Shown: in pieces, positions 603 through 61,065 of the stretch
How the letters are laid out: the number at the start of each line of letters is the position of its first letter
Position numbering within the stretch: the first letter of the stretch is position 1
Notes under the pieces: generated by a model
Seen by the model: the letters and a program-made list of their open reading frames with translations, nothing else
Told to the model about the DNA's origin: nothing
Databases searched by the model: none
Assembly (NCBI GenBank): GCA_030068145.1
Contig: JAPJBO010000659.1
Coordinates: 62,001 to 126,000, forward strand
From: Diplonema papillatum
Taxonomy: Eukaryota; Euglenozoa; Diplonemea; Diplonemida; Diplonemidae
DNA: 64,000 nt
Direction of reading: 5' to 3'
Made by a program: the position numbers and the translations under genes

Positions 603-871
603 ACACTAATGCAACAAATTTACAACTGCTGTCAGCTGGTGCCAACGTGAATGCTGCATGTAACGACGGGGTCACTGCACTCATTCGCGCAAGTTACGAG
701 GGACATGGAAGCATCGTTATGAAGCTGCTGTCTTCTGGCGCCGACGTGAATGCTGCAAAGAACGACGGTTCCACTGCACTGATTCTCGCCAGCGTGAAGG
801 GCCATGCGAACGTCATGAAGGAACTGTTGTTAGCAGGTGCCAATGGCCTGATGCCTGAGTGCCTACCCTAA
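603..871 (+). pseudogene. Ankyrin-repeat fragment 1
   Basis: The frame running to the stop at 869-871 encodes about two and a half ankyrin repeats, with the motifs GVTALIRASYEGHGSIVMKL and GSTALILASVKGHANVMKEL and loops NVNAACND and DVNAAKND. Ankyrin repeats are protein-interaction modules of ~33 residues. The fragment starts directly at the LINE junction and ends abruptly where dispersed repeat R2 begins (842), so it looks like a broken exon. A paralogous fragment starts with the same bases at 7956 beyond LINE-A. The two could be parts of one gene split by insertions, or separate members of a large family. Confidence 0.6.
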
Positions 872-957
872 GCAGGGCTGCATCCTCGTGTTGTAGCCGT
901 GTTGTGTAATATAGGAGGGGGGGCCTGGTCAACCACCTCATCACAATAGGAAAATCC
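842..957 (+). repeat. Dispersed repeat R2, copy 1
   Basis: The segment is nearly identical to 50210-50333, and the reverse complement of the family recurs at 26764-26885. It contains the shared words GCAGGGCTGCATCCTCGTG and GGCCTGGTCAACCACCTCA. It has no coding capacity and its family is unknown. Confidence 0.7.
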
Positions 958-1294
958 CAGAGTCCCGCGAGGCGAATGCGAGCAGCCAGGCATCGTGAGC
1001 CGGCCCGCCGCAGCCAGTTGTGTTAGATTGAAGCCAACTCGGGCCTTCGCCAGTTGAGCTGGAGTCTTGGCTGACTGATTCGGTAGCCAGGAGGACCGAT
1101 CTCATCAACTGAGGCAGCCGCCGGGCAGCCTACTTCGCCTGTCAGCTCGTTCCCAAGGTACCAGCAAGCCAGCTAAGGAGAGCTAACCGTGAGTGATCCT
1201 TTGATTGGTGTGAAATGAATTACACGGATGCTAAATTGGCGGATGGAGAAGGAACAACGGCTCCGAGTGACTCTCTCCAAGGAGGCAATTTAAA
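958..1294. other. Unassigned sequence
   Basis: I see no convincing reading frame, structured RNA or tandem repeat here. Confidence 0.5.
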
Positions 1295-1435
1295 TTTTGT
1301 TTTTGTAAAAGCACCTGCTTTGTAGGAAATGCTTGACGAGACTGCCAGTTGCGATAGATCAAAGGAGGAAAATGTGCTGTAGCCCACACGAAACACAGGT
1401 AAATCTGGGTTTAGTGGCGGGCGTAAGCGTTCAAC
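1295..1435 (+). repeat. Dispersed repeat R3, copy 1
   Basis: The block recurs at 20510-20645 and 23290-23435 in the same orientation (shared words GTAGGAAAT, GAGGCTGCCAG and GTGGCGGGCGTAA). It is non-coding. A pyrimidine-rich tract (about 1500-1580) without a supported gene follows up to 1788. Confidence 0.65.
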
Positions 1436-1788
1436 CCACCCAGTGGCAGGAACGGCGACGCGTGCTTGAACTCGTCATCTGTTTTACTAGTAATTCGTGA
1501 GAGCTCTCTCTTCCTTTTCGTTTCCCGCGGCCCACCCCATTCTCCTTCTCCTTCTCCCCCCCGTTCTCCTTGCCATTTTTCAACCACTTCAGTCTTTCCA
1601 CGGGCGCTGCTACTACTACCGTCCTGACCCCAGCCCTTTTTTGAACCAATGGGTCGTCATATTTGGGCCGAGATCCTTCCACCTTGCCCCGTGACCCCGC
1701 ATGGTGTCCAAAGTCCCCTTGGGGTATCACCCCATTGTAAGTTGTTATCCGGATTTCTTCATTCCTCCTTTACTTTGATCATAGGTCG

Positions 1789-2154
1789 ACTGCAATGCCC
1801 AACACTGAGGAGAGCCGATAGAGTTTCCTAAGCGCCTACGAAACGCCTACCTAACGCAAAAATACACAGAAGCAATGCCTGACTGCAATGTCCGACTGCA
1901 ATGCCCAACACTGCGATAGAGATTCCTAAGCGCCTACGAAACGCCTACCTAACGCAAAAATACACAGCAGCAATGCCTGACTGCAATGTCCGACTGCAAT
2001 GCACAACACTGAGGAGAGCCGATAGAGTTTCTTAAGCGCCTACGAAACGCCTACCTAACGCAAAATGCACAGCAGCAATGCCTGACTGACTGCAATGCCC
2101 AACACTGAGGAGAGCCGATAGAGTTTCCTAAGCGCCTACGAAACGCCTACCTAA
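1789..2154. repeat. ~100-bp tandem repeat, about 4 copies
   Basis: Units start near 1789, 1895, 1992 and 2089 and share GACTGCAATGCCCAACACTG, CTAAGCGCCTACGAAACGCC and ACACAGCAGCAATGCCTGAC. Length differences come from small internal duplications. I see no coding role. The 226 bases between this array and the 13-bp satellite look unique, with no gene. Confidence 0.85.
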
Positions 2155-2380
2155 TTCAGGCGCCTGAAATTGTCCGTCTATGCCTTGGAAGCGAACCCAA
2201 ACGAGACGAAAGAGAACGCAAATCAGTCTGGCGACACGTACCGGCCCGAGACTGTATTCATGGCGAATTGTTCGTGGTGTCATTGAAACGTGGCTAGCCA
2301 CAGGTATAGTGAGCAAATGTAGCCGGCGGGGCAGTCGGGGCGCAGCAGCTTCCTCCGGGTGCCGATGGCGGGCACTAGGC

Positions 2381-3601
2381 CCTCGTCGAGAAGCCTCGTC
2401 GAGAAGCCTCGTCGAGAAGCCTCGTCGAGAAGCCTCGTCGAGAAGCCTCGTCGAGAAGCCTCGTCGAGAAGCCTCGTCGAGAAGCCTCGTCGAGAAGCCT
2501 CGTCGAGAAGCCTCGTCGAGAAGCCTCGTCGAGAAGCCTCGTCGAGAAGCCTCGTCGAGAAGCCTCGTCGAGAAGCCTCGTCGAGAAGCCTCGTCGAGAA
2601 GCCTCGTCGAGAAGCCTCGTCGAGAAGCCTCGTCGAGAAGCCTCGTCGAGAAGCCTCGTCGAGAAGCCTCGTCGAGAAGCCTCGTCGAGAAGCCTCGTCG
2701 AGAAGCCTCGTCGAGAAGCCTCGTCGAGAAGCCTCGTCGAGAAGCCTCGTCGAGAAGCCTCGTCGAGAAGCCTCGTCGAGAAGCCTCGTCGAGAAGCCTC
2801 GTCGAGAAGCCTCGTCGAGAAGCCTCGTCGAGAAGCCTCGTCGAGAAGCCTCGTCGAGAAGCCTCGTCGAGAAGCCTCGTCGAGAAGCCTCGTCGAGAAG
2901 CCTCGTCGAGAAGCCTCGTCGAGAAGCCTCGTCGAGAAGCCTCGTCGAGAAGCCTCGTCGAGAAGCCTCGTCGAGAAGCCTCGTCGAGAAGCCTCGTCGA
3001 GAAGCCTCGTCGAGAAGCCTCGTCGAGAAGCCTCGTCGAGAAGCCTCGTCGAGAAGCCTCGTCGAGAAGCCTCGTCGAGAAGCCTCGTCGAGAAGCCTCG
3101 TCGAGAAGCCTCGTCGAGAAGCCTCGTCGAGAAGCCTCGTCGAGAAGCCTCGTCGAGAAGCCTCGTCGAGAAGCCTCGTCGAGAAGCCTCGTCGAGAAGC
3201 CTCGTCGAGAAGCCTCGTCGAGAAGCCTCGTCGAGAAGCCTCGTCGAGAAGCCTCGTCGAGAAGCCTCGTCGAGAAGCCTCGTCGAGAAGCCTCGTCGAG
3301 AAGCCTCGTCGAGAAGCCTCGTCGAGAAGCCTCGTCGAGAAGCCTCGTCGAGAAGCCTCGTCGAGAAGCCTCGTCGAGAAGCCTCGTCGAGAAGCCTCGT
3401 CGAGAAGCCTCGTCGAGAAGCCTCGTCGAGAAGCCTCGTCGAGAAGCCTCGTCGAGAAGCCTCGTCGAGAAGCCTCGTCGAGAAGCCTCGTCGAGAAGCC
3501 TCGTCGAGAAGCCTCGTCGAGAAGCCTCGTCGAGAAACCTCGTCGAGAAGCCTCGTCGAGAAGCCTCGTCGAGAAGCCTCGTCGAGAAGCCTCGTCGAGA
3601 A
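2381..3601. repeat. 13-bp minisatellite, about 94 copies
   Basis: The unit CCTCGTCGAGAAG is repeated almost without variation (one G-to-A change near 3536). Because 13 is not a multiple of 3 and the unit has no stop on either strand, several frames on both strands are open through the array. They encode a 13-residue peptide repeat (PRREASSRSLVEK on the plus strand). This opens a long frame that fuses with the downstream LINE-A RT frame. I regard that fusion as accidental. Confidence 0.95.
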
Positions 3602-6600: not shown

Positions 6601-7955
6601 CCGCCTCCACACAGGCGACCGCCCACAGATTTCGGTACAACGACCTACCGGATGCGCCGCGGAAATGGAACTTTGGCGCCCCGATGATGCGCGCTCTGAA
6701 GGGCTGGTTGGCGGCGCTGCGGTGGACCACCTTTGAAGGGGTCTCCAATATCGAGCTCGCTCTGGACTTCGAGCTGTTCACAGGGATGGATGTCAAGCAC
6801 TGCCCCAAGAGGCCGAAGGTTCAGCGCCCCGCTGGCCCCGTATCGGTGGCCGAACGGGGTCAGCGGCTAGGAGCGATGCTCGCAGTGCTGTGCCGCCTAT
6901 GCGAGACTCTGAAGCTGCCCTCGCCGCTGCCGACGGCGAGACTGGAGAGGGTGAAGAGCCTCCACACGCTCGGTGTGCCGCGGGTGATTGGCGGGCTGCA
7001 AGTACGTCCCGTCTTCGCGGCGGGCGCGGAAACGGCGGCTGTCCTGGAGGCCTGTGCCACGCGTGCCCTGCCCGTCGGTGGGCTGACAAGCCAAGTGTGG
7101 GGTAGGGACGTGTTCCCGCAGTACGACTCGGCTCTACGCGCTGAGCGCGCTCAGAAGTGGGAGGTGCGGAGGCCGGTGCTGACACGCTCTGCGCATCCAG
7201 TGCTGGTGCCCGCGTCGCAGGCCATGACGCGAGGGCGTTTTCAGGTCTGCGACAAGTGCGCGAAGAAGAAGTGTCCGTTGTGCGCCTCGAGCTCACAGCG
7301 CACGCCGGAGCAGTGTTGCCGGGACCACCACGAGCCCGGTGACGGTGTCCTCACGCAATGCTGCGGAGCGCACCACCTGACGCGTTGCGGCGGCTGCGCC
7401 AATGCCTCCGTGTGCTGCCGGAGTGGCCACCACCGGGCGGGAGACCGGCCGGACGACGCCGACGACGAGAACGAGGCACCTGCACCTCCGGCGGGACCTC
7501 AACCGGCACCGGCAGCGCCCCGACGCGGGCTCCGACGCAAACGCGGGGAGACGAGCGAGGAATCCTCCGGCTCCGGCCAGGGAGACTCACCAACGATCGA
7601 TCGCGCTGCGCCGCTGCGGCGGCGTGCTGCGGAGGACCCTTCCGTCCCACGCACCCCCCCAGCGCGGCGGCGCCGACGCACTCAACTGCCAACGCCGCAA
7701 CTCCGGGCCAACACCCCCGCCCGACGAACGCCGCCCAATGCGCAGCCCCCGGCTGCGTCCATCCGACGCGCGAACCGACGCAAACGCGAAGAAACGAGCG
7801 AAGGGTCATCCAACGATGGCTCCGGCCGGGAGGCCACAATGACACCCACTCGTAGGCCGCCTCCGCGGCGACGTAACAGACGCGTTCCATCTGCTGTGAC
7901 GTAGACACGGAGTGTGCATAGTGCGTTGCTCAGGGTAGTCGAAGGCCTGACAATC
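3602..7955 (+). mobile_element. LINE-A: 5'-truncated non-LTR retrotransposon
   Basis: The element carries reverse transcriptase and C-terminal domains closely resembling LINE-B (34811-41870), but it lacks ORF1, the 2A-like motif and the endonuclease. It begins in the linker just after the position where the endonuclease would end. Its 3' end (7850-7955) is repeated as a ~105-bp 5'-truncated copy at 21131-21240. Both 3' ends abut CACACTAATGCAACAAA. The 5' junction is against the 13-bp minisatellite, and a matching 5' target duplication is not clear there (CACACAGGGTTCAACCAAA at 3603-3621 is only a loose match). Confidence 0.85.
3622..7904 (+). pseudogene. LINE-A ORF2 remnant: reverse transcriptase plus Cys-rich C-terminus, frameshifted
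   Basis: Frame 1 runs to a stop at 6279 and a second frame carries on to 7904, so one frameshift lies between about 6150 and 6300. RT motifs in order: GVDGWRMDELK (near 4489), LIPKSEDPSPTNMRPITVTS, ALDFAKCFDRVP (near 4865), GILQGCPISVILINALLS, and YADD at 5124-5135 with the two catalytic Asp. After the shift comes CPDCELRVPDTAEHLWWACP, a CCHC-type knuckle matching the equivalent part of LINE-B. It is followed near 7240-7440 by a Cys/His-dense block (CDKCAKKKCPLC, CCRDHHEP, CGGCANASVCC) and an Arg/Pro-rich tail. The frameshift and missing endonuclease make autonomous activity unlikely. Upstream in-frame minisatellite sequence is not counted as part of the protein. Confidence 0.85.
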
Positions 7956-8242
7956 ACACTAATGCAACAAATTTACAACTGTTGTTAGGCGGTGCTGACG
8001 TGGACGCAGAGAGGCGCGGTTACACCGCACTGACTATCGCCAGCAGCAACGGCCATGAAAGCGTCGTGAAGGAACTGTTGTTAGGCGGTGGTGACGTGAA
8101 TGCTGCAATTAACGGTTGGACTGCACTTATGTACGCAAGGTGCGGGGGCCATGCAAGCGTCGTGAAGGAACTGTTGTCAGCCGAACTGCTAACTGGGAGG
8201 CAACAGGTAAGCACCACACGGAACCCGGCTGGAAGGCCCTAA
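7956..8242 (+). pseudogene. Ankyrin-repeat fragment 2
   Basis: The frame encodes about two ankyrin repeats (YTALTIASSNGHESVVKELL and WTALMYARCGGHASVVKELL, with the loop GDVNAAING) and then loses the repeat pattern before a stop at 8240-8242. The first ~20 bases match the start of fragment 1. The fragment lies between the 3' end of LINE-A and the tyrosine-recombinase element, so it is probably debris of a gene interrupted more than once. Confidence 0.6.
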
Positions 8243-8349
8243 AGGGCAGTTGTTGGTGCTTACCAAAGCTGCCCGTGGTAAAACGCCGCCCAGGCCACCC
8301 AAACAACCAACTATTTTGTACCCCCGTCCCATCCCCTACTTGTAGCCGG

Positions 8350-8391
8350 AGTTTCTGCTCTTCGTATGGTCTGACGAGAACTGCCTAGAAG
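8350..8391. repeat. Partial extra copy of the B-repeat end
   Basis: About 41 bases duplicate the outermost end of repeat B2 (8394 onward) directly outside the element, with one base changed in the shared TTCGTATGGTCTGACG stretch. It could be a footprint of a second, partly deleted insertion or of a recombination event at the element terminus. Confidence 0.7.
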
Positions 8392-8393
8392 AG

Positions 8394-8535
8394 TTTCTGC
8401 TCTTCGTATTGTCTGACGAGAACTGCCTAGAAGAAAGGGAGAAGTAAGAACACATCTTTGTAACTGATAGCACTAGCGCAAGGGAATGTTGAGTGACTGC
8501 CTTAACCCGGGGAAACGAGCTTGGGCGAGGTCACC
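8394..8535 (-). repeat. Split direct repeat B2 (3' terminus)
   Basis: This is a 142-bp copy of B1 (8649-8790), starting TTTCTGCTCTTCGTATTGTC and ending CGAGGTCACC on the plus strand. It forms the right-hand end of the minus-strand element. Confidence 0.9.
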
Positions 8536-8554
8536 GGGGGTTAGGGAGGGTGGG

Positions 8555-8648
8555 AAAACTTGAATTTTTCTTTGAACCAACCACACCCTGAAGGCTGTGT
8601 TAAGTTCTCTAATCGACTTTTCGTGGTGCATCAACTCCCTCAGTGAAA
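8555..8648 (-). repeat. Split direct repeat A2 (internal)
   Basis: This is a 94-bp copy of A1 (13062-13155), containing AACCACACCCTGAAGGCTG. It lies directly next to B1 with no gap. Confidence 0.9.
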
Positions 8649-8790
8649 TTTCTGCGCTTCGTATTGTCTGACGAGAACTGCCTAGAAGAAAGTGAGAAGT
8701 AAGAACACGTCTTTGTAACTGATAGCACTAGCGCAAGGGAATGTTGAGTGACTGCCTTAACCCAGGGAAACGAGCTTGGGCGAGGTCACC
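8649..8790 (-). repeat. Split direct repeat B1 (internal)
   Basis: This 142-bp partner of B2 lies at the 3' end of the coding region. Confidence 0.9.
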
Positions 8791-9613
8791 TTCCATCCAC
8801 CACAACGCCAGTGAGAAACTGCCTCACCGCAAGTACAATTGAATCGAGCGCATCAGCGCCAATCATGGTCAGCGGTACGCGTGACGGCAAGTCCGCAGGG
8901 TTGCCCTCACTCCTGACCCATCGTACAGAAACAGCGCAATTCAAGGAACGCACGCGTTCCAGTCCTTTAACTACCGCCTCGTTCAAGACGGCACTTTTCA
9001 AGCAGGACCCCTTACGGGCCACTCCTTTCACAGTGGTATTATCAACCACAATGTCCACTCTCCCACCTCTAATCGAGGGCGGCAGAGCCAAGACAACTAA
9101 CTTGAAGGCAATAGCCTAGCTCTCCGCAGAGTTCCAAGACCCACCCAACACGGTCACTTCCATTGTGCGCGAGTCAACAAGGACACCCCCCCAGCCTTTC
9201 TTACTCGCGTCCACGAAGGCCGTGATACGTGGGGACTGTTCGAGAGTGGGAACGGCCCTCGGCTTCAGCACCGGGTCAATCCACTCTTGGAGCGACAAAT
9301 GAACACACGGAGAAACTTCAACTCTATCAGAGGGCAGCCGAGCCCCTCGGTTCAACGAGTTGGTTATGCATCGAAAGAACTTCAACGCAAACCAAAACGA
9401 GCCCGGAAAAATGCCGGCGACTGCAGAGGCATGCAATAAGCGGCAGCCGAGAGTCTCGAGCTCGCAAGGACAGAACAGCTTACGTCGTTTCATAACTATG
9501 CATCGCTCCTGTGCGAGAGTAGAGGAATGCGAGTCTCCCGCATATTGGGTTTGAAAGAGACGAATTCGCGCGCAGATCCCGTGTTTCCTGGTAGCAATAC
9601 GATCTGAAACCAA
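8786..9613 (-). pseudogene. RNase H domain of the YR retrotransposon (broken)
   Basis: Two minus-strand frames together give an RNase H-like region. The first (9613-9116) has FVDASKKGWGGVLVDS near 9187-9223, with the first acidic residue in the DASKKGWG motif typical of DIRS/Ngaro RNase H. The second (9091-8786) has IVVDNTTVKGVARKGSCLKS, then the C-terminal WVRSEGNPADLPSR motif. A stop and frame change between them, and a stop between RT and this part, show decay. The role in an intact element would be removal of the RNA template during reverse transcription. Confidence 0.75.
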
Positions 9614-9625
9614 CGACAGAACAGC

Positions 9626-10617
9626 TTACGTCGTTTCATAACTTTGCATCGCTCCTAGCACGGCAGGCGACGATTTCAGCGTGTAGTGCGCCTCCATCAG
9701 CTTTCTTCGCAACTTCCGCGAGACAGCCACACGATGAGCAACGTAGTCCCAATCGACCCCGATGAACTCATACTGTGTGGCGACAGTCTGCGAATCGGAC
9801 GGCTTCCACGTCAGGCCGCACTCCTCCGCGGTCTGGTCCAGCCTCCGAGTCGCGAGCCGCACAGCCGGCTTCTTGCCCGCATACCGGATGTTGTCGATCC
9901 ACATGTCGACGATGACATCCCGTTCCGCAAACTCCGGACGCACGAAGTCCTCATGTCCGCCGGCCACCGCTGCCAAGGCTCCGGTGCACACGAGTGTCCC
10001 ATGGGAAGCCGCAGAAGTTCCCACCAACCACCATCGGAGTCAGCGAACCTGAAGAGATGACGCGACTCCGGCGGGATCTCAATGGCGTAAAAACCCGTCT
10101 TGAAATCCCGGGTTGAGCCACACTCCTCGCGGCTCGCCCCGAGGTAGCCGGAAACGTGTCCGAGGGGCACAGATGCTTCGTAACCCGCCTCTTGAGCGGC
10201 TCGGTTACCGTCCACCGTCCACAAGATGAAGCGCTGACGCAGCGCCCCTTCCTTCTCCTCCAGCACTGTGAAAGGGACTGAAGCGAACGGGCCGGGACCG
10301 GTTGAACTGCGGGCAATCCCGTTTTCCGCGAGCAAAGATGCATGGTCGGGACGAAGGGTCGAGGGGGACCCGATTGCCGTCTCCGTCTCGACACGGGGAA
10401 AGAACGTTGAACGCCACGTATCGTCAAAACGTCGGAGGGTTGCCTCGTTCATCCGCGCACGAAGCTTCGCGACAGACATCGGCTTGATCGGCGCGACATG
10501 CAATGGCGAAGCGCGCTCCTCCTTGCTTCGCGGCAGCCGCGTCGAACCGCCTCGTCGGGTGACGGAGTGGAATTGACCACTGCGGAGGTATCCCGTCACA
10601 AGTGCTTCGTCACCTTG
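9626..10617 (-). pseudogene. Reverse transcriptase domain of the YR retrotransposon (frameshifted)
   Basis: The frame following the recombinase encodes a start with FFPRVETETA, then DFKTGFYAIEIPPESRHLF and WWELLRLPMGHSCAPE, the palm region ahead of the active site. The active-site part lies in another frame (10027-9626): VDMWIDNIRYAG near 9877-9912 takes the place of the usual DD box, then LRRKLMEAHYTLKS. The shift is near 9985-10000. The WIDNIRYAG form resembles the active-site region of VIPER/DIRS-type RTs as I recall them. Only a profile search could confirm this. Confidence 0.75.
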
Positions 10618-11888
10618 CCGGTCTCGAGTGCCCTGGCAAGGTCCACGTCGCCCCCGGCGTACCGGAGTGTGGTCCTCGACAGCGTTCCGGGTCCGCCCTC
10701 CTCCTCGTGCTTCGTCAGCCGGTCGATGAGGTGCGGCGACAGCTTGCCGCTGGTCAGCAACGGCAAGAGGTGCTTCACCGCTCCGCGTTTGATGGAGTGC
10801 GCGGTGTACCCCTGCATCTGCGTCGACTGGCCCCACAGAGCGTCCAGTGCCGACGTTGTCAACGCCGACAGCGGAGCGAAGGGTGCACACTTCGCGTACA
10901 GAACGGCGATTTCCGCCGTCAACGGTCCCTGGATGACCGCAAACCGCGACGCCTTGAACGGATCCTGCGTCCGCCCCTTCGGCGTCTGGAACCAGTCCAC
11001 GATGACCTCCTTCTGCGTCACCAGGAGGAACTGCACTGACGAAAGATTCGCCGCCTCCGCCCAACGCGAAGCCGTCTTCCACGCGACCAGAACCGCCAGA
11101 CGAACGGACGACTGCTGCTGCCTGGCCCAAGACACAAGCTTCCGCCTCTCGATTGGCGTCGCCTGGTTCTCCGGGATAGCCGCCCCACCCCCGCGCAAGG
11201 CCTTGGCCAAGACCCGCAGGGGGTGGTTCTCGAACCCCATTGCCCCAAACGAGGCCGACAGGGCCTTGGTGTAGGCAAGCTGTCCCTGGGGCCGGACACC
11301 CGTTGCCGCCACGAACAGGCATGCCGAGTCCGCGTTCATCCCAAGTCCACGTTCTGTCGTCCATGCCTGCAGCCGCCGCCACAGGCTTCGACGCTCCTGC
11401 GTGGTCGACCGGGCCCACATGTCCGCCACGACCGCCGACATCTTCGTACGAGCCATCTCCACGGTACTCGCACCCTCCTGTGTCCGACCGGTACGGCTCG
11501 TGCCTCCAGACGAAATGAGGCGGTAGACTGCCATGCCTATCTCCGATGTCGGCATCCCTTCGGTTCCCGGCAACGGCGGCGCACAGGTTGGTCGCAGTGA
11601 CGATGAGGTCGTTGACGGCCGTGAGGAGCTGCAAGCTCGAACCCACATCATTGGCCGGGTCGGTGTTGGTGGCAGCATCGACGCCTCGGTTGTGCGTGCC
11701 AACGGGGGATGAAGATCTACTTGGTGTGTAGGCATGGGAATCGGCGGGGAGACGAACTTTTGAACGGGTGGGGAGTGCGTCGGAAAGACATTCGACGGAG
11801 GGAGGAACTTCATTCGCACGGGAGGTGAGTGGGTCGACGCGACGGTGGAACGAGGGAGGAACTTCATCCGCGCGAGCTGTTGTTGCAT
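10596..11888 (-). CDS. Tyrosine recombinase of the YR retrotransposon
   Basis: This 430-residue frame starts at ATG 11888 (in an intact element the N-terminus might begin in the overlapping frame at ATG 11931, which overlaps the stop of the previous frame). Catalytic-type residues appear in family order: Arg in WKTASRWAEAANLSS (near 11045-11095), the HxxR-like box YTAHSIKRGAVKHL (10786-10812), a second His in LTKHEEEGG, and the nucleophile Tyr in TLRYAGGDVDLA (near 10656-10672). In this element class the enzyme integrates circular DNA without target-site duplication. The recombinase lies before the RT, which is the VIPER-like order. The first ~130 residues are low-complexity and may be out of the true frame. 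Confidence 0.8.
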   Translation of the reverse strand: MQQQLARMKFLPRSTVASTHSPPVRMKFLPPSNVFPTHSPPVQKFVSPPIPMPTHQVDLHPPLARTTEASMLPPTPTRPMMWVRACSSSRPSTTSSSLRPTCAPPLPGTEGMPTSEIGMAVYRLISSGGTSRTGRTQEGASTVEMARTKMSAVVADMWARSTTQERRSLWRRLQAWTTERGLGMNADSACLFVAATGVRPQGQLAYTKALSASFGAMGFENHPLRVLAKALRGGGAAIPENQATPIERRKLVSWARQQQSSVRLAVLVAWKTASRWAEAANLSSVQFLLVTQKEVIVDWFQTPKGRTQDPFKASRFAVIQGPLTAEIAVLYAKCAPFAPLSALTTSALDALWGQSTQMQGYTAHSIKRGAVKHLLPLLTSGKLSPHLIDRLTKHEEEGGPGTLSRTTLRYAGGDVDLARALETGKVTKHL

Positions 11889-11927
11889 TGGAACTGGCTG
11901 TTGAAGCCTGGGCCGGGTGGGTGCCAG

Positions 11928-12293
11928 TCATTTCCCGCCGGCCTTTCCGTTTCCCGGCTGCCTCGGCCTGAAGGCCGGCTTCTTCGTCGGACCCCTCTCC
12001 TTCTTGCCGCGCAGAACCGCGGCGGCCTTGTCCAACGGGTCCTCAGCCTGAGACCCGATTTGTCGGAGGAGGTCCCGACGGCTCATCCCCTCCTCCACGT
12101 ACAGCTTCTGAAGCCGGAGTTGTTTCAGAAGCTCATTTCCCAGCCTCAGCTGGTCGGGGCTGCGCGTCCATCCCTCGGTGGCCGACATGGCCAACATCCA
12201 GCATCGGAGCATGCCGAACGTGCTGTCGAGCTGCTCGCCACCCGGAAGGTGAGCCCTCCCACACACGTAAGCCGATTCGACGTCCCGGATCAA
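11928..12293 (-). CDS. Second part of the Gag-like region of the YR retrotransposon
   Basis: The frame has no ATG at its beginning and overlaps the end of the first Gag frame by a few bases in the -1 frame. It may be a frameshifted continuation rather than a separate gene. It contains LRLGNELLKQLRLQKLYVEE and a basic Gly/Pro/Lys-rich end (RGPTKKPAFRPRQPGNGKAG) that would suit nucleic-acid binding. The stop overlaps the ATG of the next frame (ATGA at 11928-11931). The Gag assignment is by position and composition only. Confidence 0.45.
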   Translation of the reverse strand: MIRDVESAYVCGRAHLPGGEQLDSTFGMLRCWMLAMSATEGWTRSPDQLRLGNELLKQLRLQKLYVEEGMSRRDLLRQIGSQAEDPLDKAAAVLRGKKERGPTKKPAFRPRQPGNGKAGGK

Positions 12294-13138
12294 ACCCCAC
12301 GGGTCCAGGAGCAGTCCTTGGCGTCCTTCGCGAACACCCTGGGGGCAACGTCTTCTTCCTCTTCCTGCCGCCCGTCAGTCTCCATTGGCTGCGCGGTCGC
12401 TGACACTGACGCTACCGCGGGCGACGGCTGGTGCGAAATGCCCATCAGCTGCGTCTGCATCTGCTGCAGCACCTGCATCATGTGCGCTTGTTGCTGTTGT
12501 TGCGCCCGCATTTCCCGCTGCTGCGCCTGCATCTGCTCCTGCTGCTGCATGACCATCCGCTGCAGCTGGTCCTGAATCGATGCGCCCGCTGATGCCGTCA
12601 TCGGAGGCGCCACCGACGCAGACGGGACCGCTGCAGAGGGAACCGACGCAGAAGGAACCGGCTGCCCCACTCTGCTACCCTCGACCGGGGCCTGGATGAG
12701 ACTCGCCAGTGAAGGCGAGGGTACATCAAATTTTCCGACAATCTTCTTAACAGCTAGTGACACGCGAGCTTCGTCCTCCTCATACACGAGCATTAGGATC
12801 GCCAAGACCCGCTGCAGATCCAAACCTGCCACCTCAAGTAACGTGGCGCCGATCGCCTCGGCGAGTACCGCGCGGGCCCTGTCTGTGACGGCATCTTCGC
12901 ATGAGCCGAATAGCGTGCAACAAAATGACTCCATCTCGCGCACGCGGAACTTCCTTTTGGAAGGTGGCTCATAGGCAAAGGATCGAGTCCAGGCCTCGCG
13001 GAGCACAGAAGGGAACCTGTAGTCCCCACCTGTCGGCACTCGGCAGCGGCGAAGACATGCTAAAACTTGAATTTTTCTTTGAACCAACCACACCCTGAAG
13101 GCTGTGTTAAGTTCTCTAATCGACTTTTCGTGGTGCAT
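12290..13138 (-). CDS. Gag-like ORF1 of the YR retrotransposon
   Basis: This 282-residue frame begins at ATG 13138, which lies inside repeat A1, as expected if A1 carries the 5' leader. A helical N-terminal half (SFCCTLFGSCEDAVTDRARA; GLDLQRVLAILMLVYEEDEA) is followed by a Pro/Ser/Val linker. Then comes a Gln-rich, probably coiled-coil segment (QLQRMVMQQQEQMQAQQREM) and an acidic end. No zinc knuckle is visible. The position ahead of the recombinase and the coiled coil suggest a nucleocapsid-like protein. Confidence 0.5.
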   Translation of the reverse strand: MHHEKSIRELNTAFRVWLVQRKIQVLACLRRCRVPTGGDYRFPSVLREAWTRSFAYEPPSKRKFRVREMESFCCTLFGSCEDAVTDRARAVLAEAIGATLLEVAGLDLQRVLAILMLVYEEDEARVSLAVKKIVGKFDVPSPSLASLIQAPVEGSRVGQPVPSASVPSAAVPSASVAPPMTASAGASIQDQLQRMVMQQQEQMQAQQREMRAQQQQQAHMMQVLQQMQTQLMGISHQPSPAVASVSATAQPMETDGRQEEEEDVAPRVFAKDAKDCSWTRGV

Positions 13139-13155
13139 CAACTCCCTCAGTGAAA
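13062..13155 (-). repeat. Split direct repeat A1 (5' terminus)
   Basis: This 94-bp partner of A2 (8555-8648) marks the left end of the element on the minus strand and supplies the first ATG of the Gag-like frame. Confidence 0.9.
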
Positions 13156-13632
13156 CTGTGAGAGCGGCTCGGTGGATCATCACTGGATGAAGGACTGCAA
13201 GTCGCTGGCTCCCGACCAACGGAACGCTATCACCAACGCCTTGGCAACGATGAACGACCGTACCCGCCAGACAACGGGGAAGCACGACCGCAAACAGCGC
13301 GGCACAGAAGCAAAGCACAGGGCTGGAAGGCCCTGACGGAACGAAAAAGGTAACAGCAACACGATGTTGCCCAAACTCGTGCCGACTCTACCCGAGCAAC
13401 GAACCTATTTTCTGAGTCTAGAGGTTTGGTAAATTTGAAATTCTCAAATTTAGCTCTCTAGCGAGCTATCCCACTTTTCTGGGGCTGGCCATGAGGTACC
13501 CCCATCCCGGACATTTCTCTACCGTTTTTTCATGGTACTTTTGAGACTTCACAATTCATCGAAAAAACTCTTCTGGCGGCCGACAACGGCGTGGCACAGT
13601 CGTCAGTGCACGACGTTCCTGACCTTACACCT
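13156..13632. other. Unassigned sequence
   Basis: I see no gene or repeat with support between the YR element and the partial kinase copy. Confidence 0.4.
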
Positions 13633-14072
13633 AAAGACGCCCAGCCTCGTCTACAAAGCTTGCATGTGCAAATGGTCCCCATTTCCCTCAAACCTGATGC
13701 CACGTTCTCTCCAACAGGCGGGGGAGGGGAACTATGAACGATTCCCGGGAGCTCGAAGCTTTGCTGGATGCGGTGCAGCTGGATGGGAAGGCAAAGGGGA
13801 GCCTCGAGACGGAGGGGATCGACGACGTCGAGACGCTGCTCCTGTTCTCGGAGGCTGATTTGTCGTCGCGCGGAGTTCCGCACGGGGGGCAGCTGCTGTT
13901 TGCCGCGCGACTGTTCGGCCTCCTGAGCCGGTCGAACCTCGCCTGCTACGCGGCTTCCCTGCTTTCCTTCGGCGTCCACGATTGTCCCTCGCTGCAGGCG
14001 ACCGCACCAAACTCAAAGAGGTCTACGCAACGTTTACATTTGCGTTACATTCAAGAAAGACGCCCAGCCTCG
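13633..14072 (+). repeat. Partial kinase-gene copy flanked by 17-bp direct repeats
   Basis: AAAGACGCCCAGCCTCG occurs at 13633-13649 and again at 14056-14072, bracketing a segment that contains the duplicated 5' part of the kinase gene. The pair could be a target-site duplication or the footprint of a microhomology-driven duplication. Confidence 0.7.
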
Positions 14073-14084
14073 GTGGTCAACTGA
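13651..14084 (+). pseudogene. Truncated 5' copy of the SAM-kinase gene
   Basis: Bases 13651 to about 13998 match 14199-14555 almost exactly, covering the upstream region and the first ~87 codons (ATG at 13734, MNDSRELEALLDAVQLDGKA). The frame then departs from the gene and stops at 14082-14084 after 116 codons. Only the first SAM-like helix bundle and the start of the second remain. No kinase domain is present. Confidence 0.85.
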
Positions 14085-14285
14085 CGAAAAGACTCTCAGC
14101 ATCTGAGCATACCGAACCTTTAACGAAGAAAACAGCTTGCGTGTGCACGAAACAGTCCAATATGAGCGCGAAACAGTCCAAAGAACAATGAAAAATCAGT
14201 CTACAAAGCTTGCATGTGCAAATGGTCCCCATTTCCCTCAAAACCTCATGCCATGTTCTCTCCAACAGGCGGGGGGAGGGGGACT

Positions 14286-17204
14286 ATGAACGATTCCCGG
14301 GAGCTCGAAGCTTTGCTGGATGCGGTGCAGCTGGATGGGAAGGCGAAGGAGAGCCTCGAGACGGAGGGGATCGACGACGTCGAGACGCTGCTCCTGTTCT
14401 CGGAGGCTGATTTGTCGTCGCGCGGAGTTCCGCACGGGGGGCAGCTGCTGTTTGCCGCGCGACTGTTCGGCCTCCTGAGCCGGTCGAACCTCGCCTGCTA
14501 CGCGGCTTCCCTGCTTTCCTTCGGCGTCCGCGATTTTCCCTCGCTGCAAGCGATCACGCAGGACGACCTGACGGCTGCCGGAATCGTGAAGGAAGGCCAC
14601 CGAAGGAAACTGCTCTGCAAAGTGCAAACCATCACTTCCCTCGATCCCTGCGCTTCCTCCGCCACCATCAACCTCCCAGGCGTGTCGAAGCAGCTCTCGG
14701 CCCACCCGCAACGTGCTGCCGTGCCCAGCCACAGAGACGCGTTCGCCTTCGTATGCGGCGTTTCTCGTGAAACCAGCGGGAAACAGCCGCCGCAGGAACC
14801 GGCGACGACCCCCGCGAAGCTCCCTGGACGGCCGCTGTCGCTGGCGGCCGTGCCGCAGCCGGACACGTCCGGGCTGGGCGCGAAGCCGCTGGCGGCAGCC
14901 CTTCCGCGGCGGGCACCTTCTCTCCCTGTTGGAACCGGCGCTGCGGACGGGAACAGGAGTGCGCAGCCTTGCCATGCGCCCGGTTCTGGCGGTGGGTCAA
15001 ACGGGAACGCACGGGCTTACCATGCGCCAGCTTCTGTTTCTGGTGGCGGCGCTGCGGATGGAGCGCCCGGCGCTGGGTTGAACGGGAACACGCAGTATCC
15101 ACAAGCTTCTCTTTCTGGTACCGGCGCTGCTGATGGGTTGAACGGGAATACGCAGTCGTACCATGCGCCAGCTTCTCTTTCTGGTACCGGTGGGTTGGAC
15201 AGGAATACGCAGGCTTACCATGCGCCAGCTTCTCTTTCTGGTACCGGTGGGTTGGACAGGAATACGCAGGCTTACCAAGCGCCAGCTTCTCTTTCTGGTA
15301 CCGGTGGGTTGGACAGGAATACGCAGGCTTACCAAGCGCCAGCTTCTCTTTCTGGTACCGGTGGGTTGGACAGGAATACGCAGGCTTACCATGCGCCAGC
15401 TTCTCTTTCTGGTACCGGCGCTGCGGACGGGACGCCCAGCGTCGCTGCGGCGAATGGACGCGCGTGCTCTGGTGAACTGCCTGGGTTTTTCTCCGGGGGA
15501 AGCCCTGCGCCATCCGCTCAATTGGAAACGGTGGTTTTGAACCCGCCGGTGCCTCTGCTGAAAGAGCAGCGCTGGCTGGGCGGCGCTGCGGCGCAGCCCG
15601 TGGTGCAGGGGGGGTGCTGCTGCTTGAGGGGGTTGGGCGATGACCGCGCGCTGCTGCCGGGGCTGACGGTGTTTCGGCGGTCGAAGCGGCCGAAGGCCGA
15701 CGGCGGCGGCGGTGCGACGCCGGGAGACTCGTGGAACCGGATTTTTTCGGACGGCATCGAAAAGACGCCGCCCGAAAAAGGAGTCTTTCGCGCAACGCAG
15801 GCTGAAGGGGCTGGGACGCAGGCTGAAGGGGGAAGAGTCTGTCCTGAGACGCAGGCTGAAGGGGGAAGAGTCTGTCCTGGGACGCAGGCTGAAGGGGGAA
15901 GAGTCTGTCCTGAGACGCAGGCTGAAGGGGGAAGAGTCTGTCCTGGGACGCAGGCTGAAGGGGGAAGAGTCTTTGCGGGGACGCAGGCGCGCGAAAAAAG
16001 AACCGGCACGCCGCAGCAGGCCTTGCTGTCCCTCAAAGCGACGCCTTTGCACGACGCGCCGACGCGGCTGCCCAATAAGGACCGCTCCTCACCAGCCCCC
16101 CCCGCCGCCCTCCTCGGAAAACAGCCCGTTTCCTCGGGAGGAGAAGCCGCGGGCCCCCCGCGGAATGGATCGTCGTCTTCGGGGCCGTCTGCGCCAGCGC
16201 CGGCCGCGGTTCCCGCGGCGGCGGCGGCCGGCGGTAAGCCGGGGGGGAAGCGGGGGCTGAGCAAGTTCGTGAGCAAGATGATCGTGACGAAGCGAGCTCT
16301 CGGTGGTTTCGTGATCCCTTCGCCTGGTCCATCGGATTCGGAGTTTGAGTTCGGAGAGGTGATTGGGAGGGGGTCCTTCGGCGTGGTGTACTGCGCAGCG
16401 GGGAAGACGACAGGTGCGTCGTACGCAGTGAAGACGATCGCGCTGAAGAACAGTAGCGACGCAGCGGGGGTCTCTAAGGAGTACGAGCTGCTGAAAGGGC
16501 TCAACAACATCAACATCGTAAAAGTGTACACTTGGTACACTGACGGCAGGAACGGGAAGCAGACTGTCAACATCGTGATGGAAGCCATCCTCGGACCCGA
16601 CATCCAGTGCTCCGGGATCCTCACCGCGACGAAAATGCAGTGGTGGACGTACCAGGTCGCGTCCGGCCTAAAATACCTTCACGGGAAAGGCATCCTCCAC
16701 AACGACGTGAAACCGAGCAACATCCTGATCGACACCCACGGGATCCTGAAGCTTACGGACTTCGGGCTGAGCAGCGTCTTCGACAAGAACCAAATCGAAG
16801 TCGAATCCGCCGACGGCAAAGACACTGGCGGAACCCTGATCTACAAGTCGCCCAAGCTCGTGTACTCCAGGGGGCAGCCCACCGCCCAGAGCGACATCTG
16901 GGCCTTCGGCTGCACCGTCCTGGAGCTTTCGACGAAGCTGAAGCCCTGGCACGACAAGCACCTGACGAACGACGCGCAAATCACGGTGCATCTCGGCACC
17001 TGCTGGACGACGGGCGAAACGCCGTGCCGTGATCGCATCCCGGAAGATGACCTGGCCCCTGCCCTCAAAGAGTTCCTGACGACGGTTTTCGAGTGCGAGA
17101 GAACGGAGCTGACGATGATCGAAGTCTTCAAGGCTGACTACCTGTCCCTTGACGCGTATCCTGAGCTGTCTCTGAACGCGTGCAAGCTGAACTCGGTTGT
17201 GTAG
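14286..17204 (+). CDS. SAM-domain protein kinase with Pro/Ala/Ser-rich minisatellite linker
   Basis: The protein is 972 residues from ATG 14286, the start conserved in the 5' partial copy. An in-frame ATG at 14214 is less likely, and TCTCCAACAG just upstream could be a splice acceptor in the 5' UTR. An N-terminal SAM-like segment (residues ~4-60) is followed by a clearer SAM domain (~68-118, ITQDDLTAAGIVKEGHRRKL). Then come about seven 19-residue repeats (APASLSGTGGLDRNTQ type, 57 bp) and about six 11-residue TQAEGGRVCPE repeats. The kinase domain starts near 685: GRGSFGVV loop at 694-701, Lys716 in YAVKTIAL, HNDVKPSN with Asp807, Asp825 of TDFG, and DIWAFGCTVLEL. The form is closest to STE11/MAP3K-type Ser/Thr kinases. 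The usual HRD Arg is Asn, as in several MAP3K-like enzymes. SAM suggests oligomerisation or scaffold binding. The substrate is unknown. Confidence 0.9.
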   Translation: MNDSRELEALLDAVQLDGKAKESLETEGIDDVETLLLFSEADLSSRGVPHGGQLLFAARLFGLLSRSNLACYAASLLSFGVRDFPSLQAITQDDLTAAGIVKEGHRRKLLCKVQTITSLDPCASSATINLPGVSKQLSAHPQRAAVPSHRDAFAFVCGVSRETSGKQPPQEPATTPAKLPGRPLSLAAVPQPDTSGLGAKPLAAALPRRAPSLPVGTGAADGNRSAQPCHAPGSGGGSNGNARAYHAPASVSGGGAADGAPGAGLNGNTQYPQASLSGTGAADGLNGNTQSYHAPASLSGTGGLDRNTQAYHAPASLSGTGGLDRNTQAYQAPASLSGTGGLDRNTQAYQAPASLSGTGGLDRNTQAYHAPASLSGTGAADGTPSVAAANGRACSGELPGFFSGGSPAPSAQLETVVLNPPVPLLKEQRWLGGAAAQPVVQGGCCCLRGLGDDRALLPGLTVFRRSKRPKADGGGGATPGDSWNRIFSDGIEKTPPEKGVFRATQAEGAGTQAEGGRVCPETQAEGGRVCPGTQAEGGRVCPETQAEGGRVCPGTQAEGGRVFAGTQAREKRTGTPQQALLSLKATPLHDAPTRLPNKDRSSPAPPAALLGKQPVSSGGEAAGPPRNGSSSSGPSAPAPAAVPAAAAAGGKPGGKRGLSKFVSKMIVTKRALGGFVIPSPGPSDSEFEFGEVIGRGSFGVVYCAAGKTTGASYAVKTIALKNSSDAAGVSKEYELLKGLNNINIVKVYTWYTDGRNGKQTVNIVMEAILGPDIQCSGILTATKMQWWTYQVASGLKYLHGKGILHNDVKPSNILIDTHGILKLTDFGLSSVFDKNQIEVESADGKDTGGTLIYKSPKLVYSRGQPTAQSDIWAFGCTVLELSTKLKPWHDKHLTNDAQITVHLGTCWTTGETPCRDRIPEDDLAPALKEFLTTVFECERTELTMIEVFKADYLSLDAYPELSLNACKLNSVV
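14990..15430 (+). repeat. 57-bp in-frame minisatellite inside the kinase gene
   Basis: The 19-codon unit (TCTGGTACCGGTGGGTTGGA core) is repeated about seven times. The central four units are almost identical, and the outer ones are diverged with GAADG in place of GGLDR. The frame is preserved throughout. Confidence 0.85.
15795..15990 (+). repeat. 33-bp in-frame minisatellite inside the kinase gene
   Basis: About six units encode TQAEGGRVCP(E/G), so each unit adds a Cys. They alternate between E and G at the last codon. Length is a multiple of three, unlike the intergenic satellites of this window. Confidence 0.85.
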
Positions 17205-35617: not shown

Positions 35618-37420
35618 ATGGATGACGTCGACGCACTGATCGCTAGGGCATCCGCCTTGGCTGGGAAGTGCCATGACAAAAAGACGAGGCAGCAACTGCT
35701 GAAAATCTTAGACGTCATCCTGTCCTTGGTCGAGACAGGGATGGCCGGATCGTCGCCCGCACCGCTTGGCGCCCAGAAACCCGCGCCCCCTTCGACGCAT
35801 GGCTCCGGGGCACAAGAGGCTCGACCTCCGGTATCCGAGAAGCGTTCGGTGTCCGATAAGCGACCGGTATCCGAGAAGCGACCGGACCCCTCCACCGAAG
35901 ATTCATGGGCGGAAAGGATGCGCCGCTCTACATCGACGAAGCAACCGCAGGTGCCTAGCACGTGGTCGGAGAGGACGCGCCGCACCCGTCCGAAGGCCAG
36001 TATGGTCTTCCATGACTGGCAAGTGGCGAAGGTCGGGTCTACCGACGAGTTGAGGAGCGGAAAGGGCGGCCTACTCGTGGCTGCAAGTGTCGAAGATGCG
36101 GAATCCGCATGGGGTGCGGCCCTCGACACCGTCGCGGTTTACCCCGAAGCGAAGGTTGCCGTCGTCTGCAGCGTTCCGTGGGACGGTTCAGTGAGGCACC
36201 TCGTCACCTTGTCTGACGGCGGTCATCAGGACGTATGGTCGCGGTTCCAAAACCTGGCCCTGCCCACGGTGCATTGCAAAGCAGTCAACACCCTCCAGCC
36301 GACGACACAGGTTTGCCTGTTCCAGGTGCGCGCCGCCTACGTCCACGCGGCCACCTGGGATACCGCGATGAAGGCCGCACAATCTGTGCGGATTATGGCG
36401 AAGAAGGCCGCAGAAGCGGAAGGACTGCGCATGGATTGGAGCGCAGTGTTCACAAAGGTGCACCGCCGGCAGGGGGTGTGTGAGGTGAGCGTGCGCGTCC
36501 CGATCGTTGACGTGCAGAAGCTGCTGCGGAGCTCCGGCAAAGCCGGAACATTCTGGAAGGCCTTGTCCTTCGTCAACGGGACGGACACCATGCCGGCGGT
36601 GTGGGTGAGTGACTGCACCCTTGAAGAGGCGCGACGGCTGGCGGCACTGACTCCGAATACGTTCGGGGTAATCGCGGGCACAAAGACGGGTGTCTTCGGC
36701 ATTCGGACGACCCCGGAACACGTTGCCGCCACCGAATCCGCGGTCGGAAAAAAGCTGTCGAAGCGCCAACTGCGTGGCGACAAATACGTGGTCACCACCG
36801 CGTGCGCTTCGGAACACGCGACCGACCTCCTTGCCGCCTGCGCTGCTGCCGGCTGGAAGGTCGAACAAGCCGGGGCCTTCAAGCGACAAGGTAAGACCGT
36901 GTGCATCGTCATCGCCGACACGGGCCCACCTGCACCCGTGTTCTTCCGGCTCGATCGCGCGTCTATTTCGATAAGGAAATACGACCGCTCCACTGACGCG
37001 AGGCAACGGAAGGGATTCTCCACGCAGTGTCAGCGGGAGAAGGTCAAACTCCCACCCGAGTTCTTCGCTAGCCTCAACGAACGGCCCGAGCCGTCTCCGG
37101 GCCAAAAGAGGGGACGCACAGAGGATGAGACAACTGAGTCCCAGGAAAAGCTAGCACGGGTGGACGGCAAGGACAACATGGTCACCGACTGCCGGCACAC
37201 CAGCTGGCAGGAAGCACACTCGAACGCCGAAGCTTTCCTCTGCGTGGTCTGCGCCAAAGGCATGCAGGTCGGACAAGCCAAGCGGCTTTGCGCGCACGGC
37301 CCCTGCCAGGCTGCAATCTGTCACGCATGCTGGACTAAGTCGCGGGCCACGCCGCCAACTTCATCTCCCTCGCCCGCGCAGGCGACCGCCGACGTCCCCC
37401 CCCCGGAGTCACAATGGTGA
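35618..37420 (+). CDS. LINE-B ORF1, Gag-like RNA-binding candidate
   Basis: The protein is 600 residues, starting at ATG 35618. The N-terminus is short and helical (DALIARASALAGKCHDKKTR). A Pro/Ser-rich segment follows with three related PVSEKR-type repeats. The central region (~125-460) has a regular alpha/beta-looking character (WQVAKVGSTDELRSGKGGLL; YVVTTACASEHATDLLAACA), but I do not recognise it. The C-terminus holds a Cys/His cluster at about residues 528-572 (TDCRHTSW, FLCVVCAKGM, LCAHGPCQAAICHACW) that could bind zinc and nucleic acid. In LINEs ORF1 proteins package element RNA. ORF1 overlaps ORF2 by 7 bases (37414-37420), suggesting termination-reinitiation or another coupling. Confidence 0.7.
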   Translation: MDDVDALIARASALAGKCHDKKTRQQLLKILDVILSLVETGMAGSSPAPLGAQKPAPPSTHGSGAQEARPPVSEKRSVSDKRPVSEKRPDPSTEDSWAERMRRSTSTKQPQVPSTWSERTRRTRPKASMVFHDWQVAKVGSTDELRSGKGGLLVAASVEDAESAWGAALDTVAVYPEAKVAVVCSVPWDGSVRHLVTLSDGGHQDVWSRFQNLALPTVHCKAVNTLQPTTQVCLFQVRAAYVHAATWDTAMKAAQSVRIMAKKAAEAEGLRMDWSAVFTKVHRRQGVCEVSVRVPIVDVQKLLRSSGKAGTFWKALSFVNGTDTMPAVWVSDCTLEEARRLAALTPNTFGVIAGTKTGVFGIRTTPEHVAATESAVGKKLSKRQLRGDKYVVTTACASEHATDLLAACAAAGWKVEQAGAFKRQGKTVCIVIADTGPPAPVFFRLDRASISIRKYDRSTDARQRKGFSTQCQREKVKLPPEFFASLNERPEPSPGQKRGRTEDETTESQEKLARVDGKDNMVTDCRHTSWQEAHSNAEAFLCVVCAKGMQVGQAKRLCAHGPCQAAICHACWTKSRATPPTSSPSPAQATADVPPPESQW

Positions 37421-60927: not shown

Positions 60928-61065
60928 AGTTTCAAGCGCACATATCCCTAACCATCGTTGCATCGTTGCAGGAAATCATGGGTTTTTTTTTTTCTTTTGC
61001 ATCGTTGCATCGTTGCATGATCGTTGCTCACTATGGTAGGCATAGGGCAACCATGCAACGATAGC

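What the first reader, a model, noticed from the sequence alone, without database searches (positions are those of the whole stretch)
8394..13155. VIPER-ordered tyrosine-recombinase retrotransposon with textbook split direct repeats
The sequence shows A1 (94 bp), coding region, B1 (142 bp), A2 (94 bp), B2 (142 bp), with equal lengths within each pair. The recombinase frame, with R, HxxR, H and Y residues, lies upstream of the RT/RNase H frame. From established knowledge, Gag-YR-RT-RH is the order of trypanosomatid VIPER, while DIRS and Ngaro put the recombinase last. Split repeats plus VIPER order in a genome that looks algal/alveolate would widen the known range of this lineage.
Basis: partly seen in the sequence, partly recalled or inferred. 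Interest (0 to 1): 0.85.

Follow-up and report, generated by a model that had tools for sequence, protein, structure and literature searches.

The report
VIPER-like jumping gene in a diplonemid
The window holds a damaged copy of a retrotransposon that appears to splice itself into DNA with a tyrosine recombinase, of a kind known from trypanosomes, here in their free-living relative Diplonema, where near-identical intact copies suggest that the family moved recently.

Summary
On the minus strand, 13161 to 8349, lies a 4813-nt copy: A1, broken gag, intact tyrosine recombinase (YR) frame, broken RT/RNase H, B1, A2, spacer, B2. Six sister copies are intact, exactly 4743 nt long, and differ by 1-12 nt. 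Their ends, fused, equal the internal B1|A2 junction, which fits a circular intermediate. Of 15 copies tested, 7 had a findable empty site, and in all 7 the flanks join with no duplication or loss. Targets read roughly A-C-[T/A]-[C/A]^C. The YR lies upstream of RT in 60 of 78 listed RT matches and downstream in none. The host guess was wrong: spliced-leader motifs and a U2 array point to Diplonema papillatum, a diplonemid, sister to the kinetoplastids that carry VIPER and TATE. Its published genome already mentions TATE-like ORFs. So this is a new, fully delimited, probably recently active member of the VIPER-like kind, with hundreds of SIRE-like short derivatives and a suggestive bias of long copies towards minisatellite arrays. 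Membership by RT phylogeny could not be tested: no reference RT sequences were available.

The parts
8349..13161 (-). whole element copy, 4813 nt (intact sister copies are 4743 nt)
   Evidence: ends TCACAG / GAAACTC shared with intact copies
13062..13161 (-). A1, 5' terminal repeat (100 nt)
11928..13058 (-). gag-like region, broken by frameshifting indels; 387-aa frame in intact copies
10596..11888 (-). tyrosine recombinase frame, 430 aa, intact; R, K, HxxK-R, H and Y motifs at about 11075-11043, 10997-10971, 10802-10776, 10715-10701, 10673-10650
   Evidence: motif assignment from established knowledge plus alignment to Pfam-scoring YRs of the same genome
8786..11931 (-). RT/RNase H region (996-aa frame in intact copies, overlapping the YR frame), broken here by a 10-nt deletion, a 186-nt insertion and further indels
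   Evidence: RNase H by PF17917 on an intact sister copy
8649..8790 (-). B1, internal copy of the 3' repeat, lacks one 42-nt unit and its last 3 nt
8555..8648 (-). A2, internal copy of the 5' repeat, lacks its first 6 nt
8536..8554 (-). spacer between A2 and B2 (19 nt), C-rich on the sense strand
8349..8535 (-). B2, 3' terminal repeat with two 42-nt tandem units at its end

Best explanation
A VIPER-like (order DIRS) tyrosine-recombinase retrotransposon of the diplonemid Diplonema papillatum. SHOWN: YR before RT/RH, with a gag-like frame first; split direct repeats; six intact 4743-nt copies; fused ends equal to the internal B1|A2 junction; insertion without target duplication at a short A-C-[T/A]-[C/A]^C site; more A2-x-B2 junctions than full copies, and short A-x-B copies read directly. 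INFERRED: the genomic RNA begins inside A1 and ends inside B2; the internal B1-A2 block serves as template to restore the outer ends and close a circular DNA; the YR recombines the circle junction (GAAACTC|TCACAG) with a short CTC-like core in the chromosome. Short A-x-B copies are the SIRE equivalent, left by loss of the A1-to-B1 part or moved in trans. The window copy is dead: gag and RT/RH are broken.
For: Repeats and order. Six of six intact copies read whole are 4743 nt, A1=A2 in 6 of 6, B1=B2 in 5 of 6 (1 nt off in the sixth), three open frames each, 1-12 differences between copies. 31 of 96 listed YR matches keep the whole 443-aa frame open at 98-100%; 22 of 78 listed RT matches lie in a 1033-aa open frame. 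YR upstream 60 of 78, downstream 0, none listed 18. Ends linked to frames in 60 of 78. Empty site best with no loss or gain in 7 of 7 copies where one was found within 3 mismatches, out of 15 tested. Target: C at -3 in 27 of 36 left flanks, C at +1 in 24 of 26 right flanks. RNase H: PF17917 at its cut-off when the domain is given alone (24.8 bits, E 2.4e-5). YR: HSIKRGA aligns with HSLRRGA of Pfam-scoring YRs of the same genome, z 5.2, 5.8 and 6.3 against 200 shuffles in 3 of the 4 comparisons in that frame. Genome counts at up to 2 mismatches: A 5' ends 859, B1|A2 99, A2-x-B2 357, A1-gag 41, controls 0. Host (PMC10161547 passages).
Against: No Pfam match to Phage_integrase for this YR family, and none to any RT model for the RT part, at E up to 10; whole RT/RH pieces match RNase H only below its cut-off (21.1-22.3 bits against 24.8). 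In the whole-genome search PF00589 listed 150 places, none at this family's YR. One of four comparisons stayed under z 4. PDB sequence searches: none for RT/RH and RNase H, only unconvincing ones for RT (one, E 0.021, a DNA circularization protein) and YR (two, E 0.43 and 1.4). HxxK replaces HxxR, and RT motif C reads IDN instead of xxDD in all 50 stretches found (duplicates of loci included), so catalysis is inferred. The predicted YR structure had pLDDT 35.7 and is unusable. No RNA, protein or circular DNA data were available. No VIPER or TATE sequence was available for a tree.
Confidence: 0.85

Rival explanations
1. It is a Ngaro-, PAT- or DIRS-derived element whose YR moved upstream independently, so that the VIPER order is convergent.
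For: Structural features are known to be homoplasious in YR elements (PMC4157794 passages); PAT and Ngaro share the A1..B1-A2-B2 pattern (PMC6681497 sections). No phylogeny could be made here.
Against: No copy with YR downstream among 78 listed RT matches; no room for a methyltransferase (DIRS, PAT) after RNase H, because the frame ends inside the first 5 nt of B1; the host is the sister group of the VIPER hosts (relationship recalled).
Confidence: 0.12
2. The excess of long copies in minisatellite arrays reflects survival (insertions elsewhere are purged or shortened to A-x-B), not target choice.
For: Short copies, presumably older on average, are mostly outside arrays (4 of 17) while long ones are mostly inside (22 of 27), Fisher p 0.0003; with doubtful labels turned against the bias 20 of 27 and 5 of 18, p 0.005. 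Ages were not measured.
Against: The six intact copies differ by at most 12 of 4743 nt, leaving little time for selection; 4 of the 6 lie directly in arrays and a fifth is nested in a short copy that lies in one.
Confidence: 0.5
3. Short A-x-B copies are mobile in their own right (SINE-like) rather than deletion products of full copies.
For: 357 A2-x-B2 junctions against 99 B1|A2 junctions; a form with a foreign interior exists (L014); a short copy inside an array, with its own clean empty site, carries a nested full one (L031).
Against: Recombination between A1 and A2, or YR action at the two A starts, would give exactly A-x-B from a full copy (inference).
Confidence: 0.5

Closest known systems
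VIPER of Trypanosoma cruzi (with SIRE)
   Same: Gag-like, YR and RT/RH order with overlapping YR and RT/RH frames; A1 ... B1 A2 B2; no target duplication; short A2-B2 derivative with its own small internal region (PMC6681497 sections; PMC5146736 and PMC12278014 passages). Frame sizes are close: 446, 335 and 942 aa there, 387, 430 and 996 aa here.
   Different: Host is a diplonemid; repeats are 100 and 187 nt instead of 173 and 219; no CH-box in the gag-like frame of the one copy tested, whereas T. cruzi Dm28c VIPER has one; recombinase HxxK and RT motif IDN (whether VIPER has these was not checked).
TATE of Leishmania and relatives
   Same: Same order and repeat pattern; insertion into tandem (telomeric) repeats and tandem clusters in L. 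braziliensis (PMC6681497, sections). ORFs like TATE are reported in D. papillatum (PMC10161547, passages).
   Different: Here the arrays are minisatellites of many different units (22, 31, 41, 62, 102 nt among others), not telomeric hexamers.
Ngaro (for example of Cafeteria burkhardae)
   Same: A1-[ORFs]-B1A2B2, isolated AB repeats scattered in the genome, target preference (PMC8547959, passages)
   Different: Ngaro carries YR after RT/RH (established knowledge); here it lies before.
PAT and DIRS1
   Same: YR in place of integrase; PAT has split direct repeats
   Different: Both are described with a methyltransferase domain (PMC4157794, passages), for which there is no room here; DIRS1 has inverted repeats.

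Membership tests
VIPER-like (VIPER/TATE) | order Gag - YR - RT/RH on one strand | tested here: met
   six intact copies; YR upstream in 60 of 78 listed RT matches, downstream in 0, none listed 18
VIPER-like (VIPER/TATE) | split direct repeats A1 at 5', B1-A2-B2 at 3' | tested here: met
VIPER-like (VIPER/TATE) | overlapping YR and RT/RH frames | tested here: met
   ORF3 open through the whole YR frame; its ATG overlaps the gag stop. But its YR-overlapping part shows no sign of constraint (16 differences, 3 synonymous in ORF3, 9 in YR)
VIPER-like (VIPER/TATE) | no target site duplication | tested here: met
   7 of 7 copies with a findable empty site, 15 tested
VIPER-like (VIPER/TATE) | short A2-B2 derivative (SIRE) with its own internal region (VIPER) | tested here: met
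   A2-x-B2 357 junctions against 99 B1|A2; spacer of about 20 nt
VIPER-like (VIPER/TATE) | RT groups with VIPER/TATE in a tree | not testable with these tools
   no VIPER, TATE, Ngaro, PAT or DIRS reference was found to hand; scans of viral and prokaryote contigs gave no relative
VIPER-like (VIPER/TATE) | tyrosine recombinase catalytic residues R, K, HxxR, H, Y | tested here: inconclusive
   R, K, H, Y present; HxxR is HxxK followed by R; no Pfam match
VIPER-like (VIPER/TATE) | reverse transcriptase and RNase H | tested here: inconclusive
   RNase H PF17917 at cut-off; RT only by motif order seen by eye, motif C IDN
Ngaro | YR downstream of RT/RH | tested here: not met
   0 of 78 listed RT matches
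DIRS1 and PAT | methyltransferase domain; inverted repeats in DIRS1 | tested here: not met
   the RT/RH frame ends inside the first bases of B1, with no frame after RNase H; 0 inverted repeats of 30 nt or more in 7500-14500

The most novel reading that the evidence does not exclude
The VIPER/TATE lineage predates the split of diplonemids and kinetoplastids and is still mobile in a free-living diplonemid, where its recombinase, with a changed active site (HxxK), inserts circular DNA at loose CTC-C sites and concentrates intact copies in minisatellite arrays as safe havens, while short A-x-B forms spread elsewhere.
Probability: 0.4. Interest if true: 0.65.

Novelty: new member of a known kind. 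Interest (0 to 1): 0.45.

Why it matters
To my knowledge, replication of split-repeat YR retrotransposons is a model drawn mostly from sequence. Here is a family with six intact copies, exact ends, a circle-junction motif, mapped empty sites and a target consensus, in a free-living protist for which gene replacement is reported (PMC10161547, passages). It also dates VIPER-like elements either to the ancestor shared by diplonemids and kinetoplastids or to a horizontal transfer, which a tree could decide.

Tried and rejected
Algal or alveolate host: rejected. Reading the 9-nt gap at B1|A2 as a natural junction: rejected, 20 of 22 junction strings keep those bases and the other 2 are the window copy read twice. 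Dual coding of YR and ORF3: weak evidence against. Structure of the YR: one job, pLDDT 35.7, dropped without fold search. Relatives in viral contigs (RT 13 and YR 4 pattern hits, none confirmed) and genome contigs (66 pattern hits, none confirmed); single-sequence queries reach close relatives only. NCBIfam gave matches far below the cut-offs, which I take as low-complexity or chance.

Limits of the counts. A 4-mismatch signal at a 4-nt duplication comes from the 4-N spacer that I put into the script. One search listed 41 left and 57 right flanks, under stricter rules, kept 36 and 26: dropped were left flanks that did not begin TC or were internal B1|A2 junctions, and right flanks that were inner 42-nt units, internal junctions or not ending CTC. 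Some kept flanks lie in related satellites and are not fully independent (for example L053, L062, L064). Long and short labels were set by hand; several long copies are known from one flank and the YR only; two with array cover 0.40 and 0.38 were counted outside, one with exactly 0.50 inside, and L031 inside although its own flank is a short copy whose 42-nt units raise the cover. The short copy in L073 and those in L018 and L027 were left out. With L031 outside and the L073 short copy added the test gives 21 of 27 against 5 of 18, p 0.0017; with L013 outside too, 20 of 27, p 0.005. The array background is one window only (64 of 373 random 250-nt pieces). Script 45 stopped with an error after printing the six whole copies. 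One search contained one row in a wrong frame and was not used.
Full report
OBSERVATION. The element lies on the minus strand. Read as it stands, the gag and RT/RH frames are broken and the YR frame is open (430 aa from ATG).

INTACT SISTERS. The A repeat has 40 scored matches (1075 first-look candidates) in the 271-Mb own genome. Six copies fetched whole (L031-L036; of nine places asked for, the other three are a solo A, a truncated piece and a copy without A1) are each exactly 4743 nt, with frames of 387, 430 and 996 aa, A1 identical to A2 in 6 of 6, B1 identical to B2 in 5 of 6, and 1-12 differences between copies. Measured on them, A is 100 nt, B 187 nt with two 42-nt tandem units at its end, and the A2-B2 spacer 20 nt. 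The window copy therefore spans 8349-13161; it has lost one 42-nt unit in B1 and 9 nt exactly at B1|A2. Its differences from an intact copy are clustered in gag and in the RT/RH part, with 2 mismatches in the bins from 800 to 3299, which suggests a mosaic.

FRAMES. In intact copies the gag stop overlaps the ATG of the third frame, which stays open through the whole YR frame. Between two subfamilies the YR region differs at 16 sites: 9 synonymous in YR, 3 in the overlapping frame; numbers are small. RNase H matches PF17917 at 24.8 bits, equal to its cut-off, when given alone, and 21.1-22.3 bits in longer pieces. RT is assigned from motif order by eye; no Pfam RT model matched. Motif C reads IDN in all 50 stretches found, which include duplicates of loci. 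The YR has R, K, H-S-I-K-R, H and Y, kept in a family at 54% identity (L074). It has no Pfam match, but PF00589 finds other YRs in the same genome (150 scored of 1099 candidates, none of the listed places at this element's YR). Of two such fragments compared with two YRs of this element, 3 of 4 comparisons in the right frame gave z 5.2-6.3 against shuffles, with HSLRRGA on HSIKRGA; the fourth stayed under 4.

ORDER AND LINKAGE. Of 78 listed RT matches, 60 have a listed YR directly upstream on the same strand, 0 downstream, 18 none listed. 60 of 78 have a B1|A2 junction within 900 nt downstream, which explains 60 of the 99 junctions in the genome; the other 39 lie at copies not in that list. 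31 of 96 listed YR matches keep the full frame at 98-100% identity. Places with YR at about 74% but RT at 92%, and others with YR 75% and RT 97%, point to exchange of parts.

ENDS, TARGETS, SHORT FORMS. In the six intact copies the left end TCACAG and right end GAAACTC, fused, give the B1|A2 junction. Of 15 copies with both ends in hand, 7 had an empty site within 3 mismatches in the same locus, and in all 7 joining without gain or loss fits best; the other 8, the window copy among them, had none, as expected for unique flanks. C stands at -3 in 27 of 36 left flanks and at +1 in 24 of 26 right flanks. Whole-genome pattern counts at up to 2 mismatches: A starts 859, B1|A2 99, A2-x-B2 357, A1-gag 41, reversed controls 0. 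So short A-x-B copies outnumber full ones (by subtraction, about 258 against 99); some carry a foreign interior or only the last bases of B. Long copies lie in tandem arrays in 22 of 27 cases, short ones in 4 of 17 (Fisher p 0.0003; 20 of 27 and 5 of 18, p 0.005, with doubtful labels turned against the bias), against 64 of 373 random pieces of the window. Samples were chosen by high identity and labels set by hand, so this is suggestive only.

HOST. The spliced-leader core shared by kinetoplastids and diplonemids (recalled) has 624 hits, control 0; the dinoflagellate one (recalled) has none. 27 of 46 listed U2 matches lie on one contig, mostly at about 1240-nt steps with a few wider gaps, and spliced-leader hits sit about 240 nt from U2 on two other contigs. 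The D. papillatum genome paper describes U2 alternating with 5S and SL RNA genes up to 27 times in a row and calls this unit apparently absent in other diplonemids (PMC10161547, passages). Its assembly is 280 Mb in 6181 contigs; the held one is 271 Mb in 2910. The paper counts 110 SL genes; the larger count here may include fragments. The species name is thus an inference, the phylum a firm one.

COMPARISON. VIPER and TATE share order, overlapping frames, repeat pattern, lack of target duplication and, for VIPER, the SIRE short form (PMC6681497, sections; PMC5146736 and PMC12278014, passages). The structural features tested all meet the VIPER-like description; the tree that defines the group was not testable, and the catalytic motifs are inconclusive. 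The Diplonema paper mentions more than 60 ORFs resembling proteins of TATE, MULE and Helitron, without anatomy in the passages I read. Searches for diplonemid with DIRS (0 papers), for diplonemid, retrotransposon and tyrosine recombinase (15 of 179 listed; one cryptomonad paper, PMC12747079, holds all three words and was not read) and for VIPER, TATE and Euglen- (4 papers) showed in their listings no paper describing such an element (open-licence papers only).

MECHANISM. Shown: conservative insertion of a unit whose fused ends match its internal junction. Inferred: circular intermediate, recombinase action, end restoration from B1-A2. Speculative: the sense-strand C-rich spacer has a G-rich complement with four G runs, which might stall second-strand synthesis (one search gives the sequence only).

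CHECK.

Noticed in passing
window 37414-41793 (+): LINE-type ORF of 1459 aa; its N-terminus carries a 2A-like motif (TQGIEPNPGP), as recalled for L1Tc/ingi elements of trypanosomes.
   Followed up: no
window 13720-13948 and 14272-14500 (+): 99% identical tandem copies (552-nt step) of the 5' part of the kinase-like gene at 14214-17204; fits the repeat-bounded genes described for Diplonema papillatum (PMC10161547, passages).
   Followed up: partly
window 50831-51141 (+): Fragment of eukaryotic SSU rRNA (RF01960, positions 1194-1486, 54.9 bits); the only Rfam match of the window.
   Followed up: no
window 61065-64000: 13-nt satellite, about 226 copies at 99% match, running to the window end; another 13-nt array at 2381-3601 adjoins LINE-like sequence.
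   Followed up: no
window 52530-55493 (+): 987-aa ORF with an acidic tail, perhaps a transposase; not searched.
   Followed up: no
G000 C598:15573 and 15880; C1174:3945 and 4209: B|A junctions 307 and 264 nt apart on one strand: probably head-to-tail A-x-B units, as if the junction itself were a target.
   Followed up: partly
L031 (G000 C404:22300-28700): A full 4743-nt copy nested in a short A-x-B copy, itself inside a 31-nt minisatellite array.
   Followed up: yes
L014 (G000 C303), about 1495-2422: Non-autonomous form: A and B ends around a largely unrelated interior.
   Followed up: partly
G000, PF00589 matches such as C14:354594-354788 and C400:134516-134680: Other abundant YR families (open frames of about 521 and 554 aa) in the same genome, type of element unknown; the two fragments read carry the HSLRRG motif.
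   Followed up: partly
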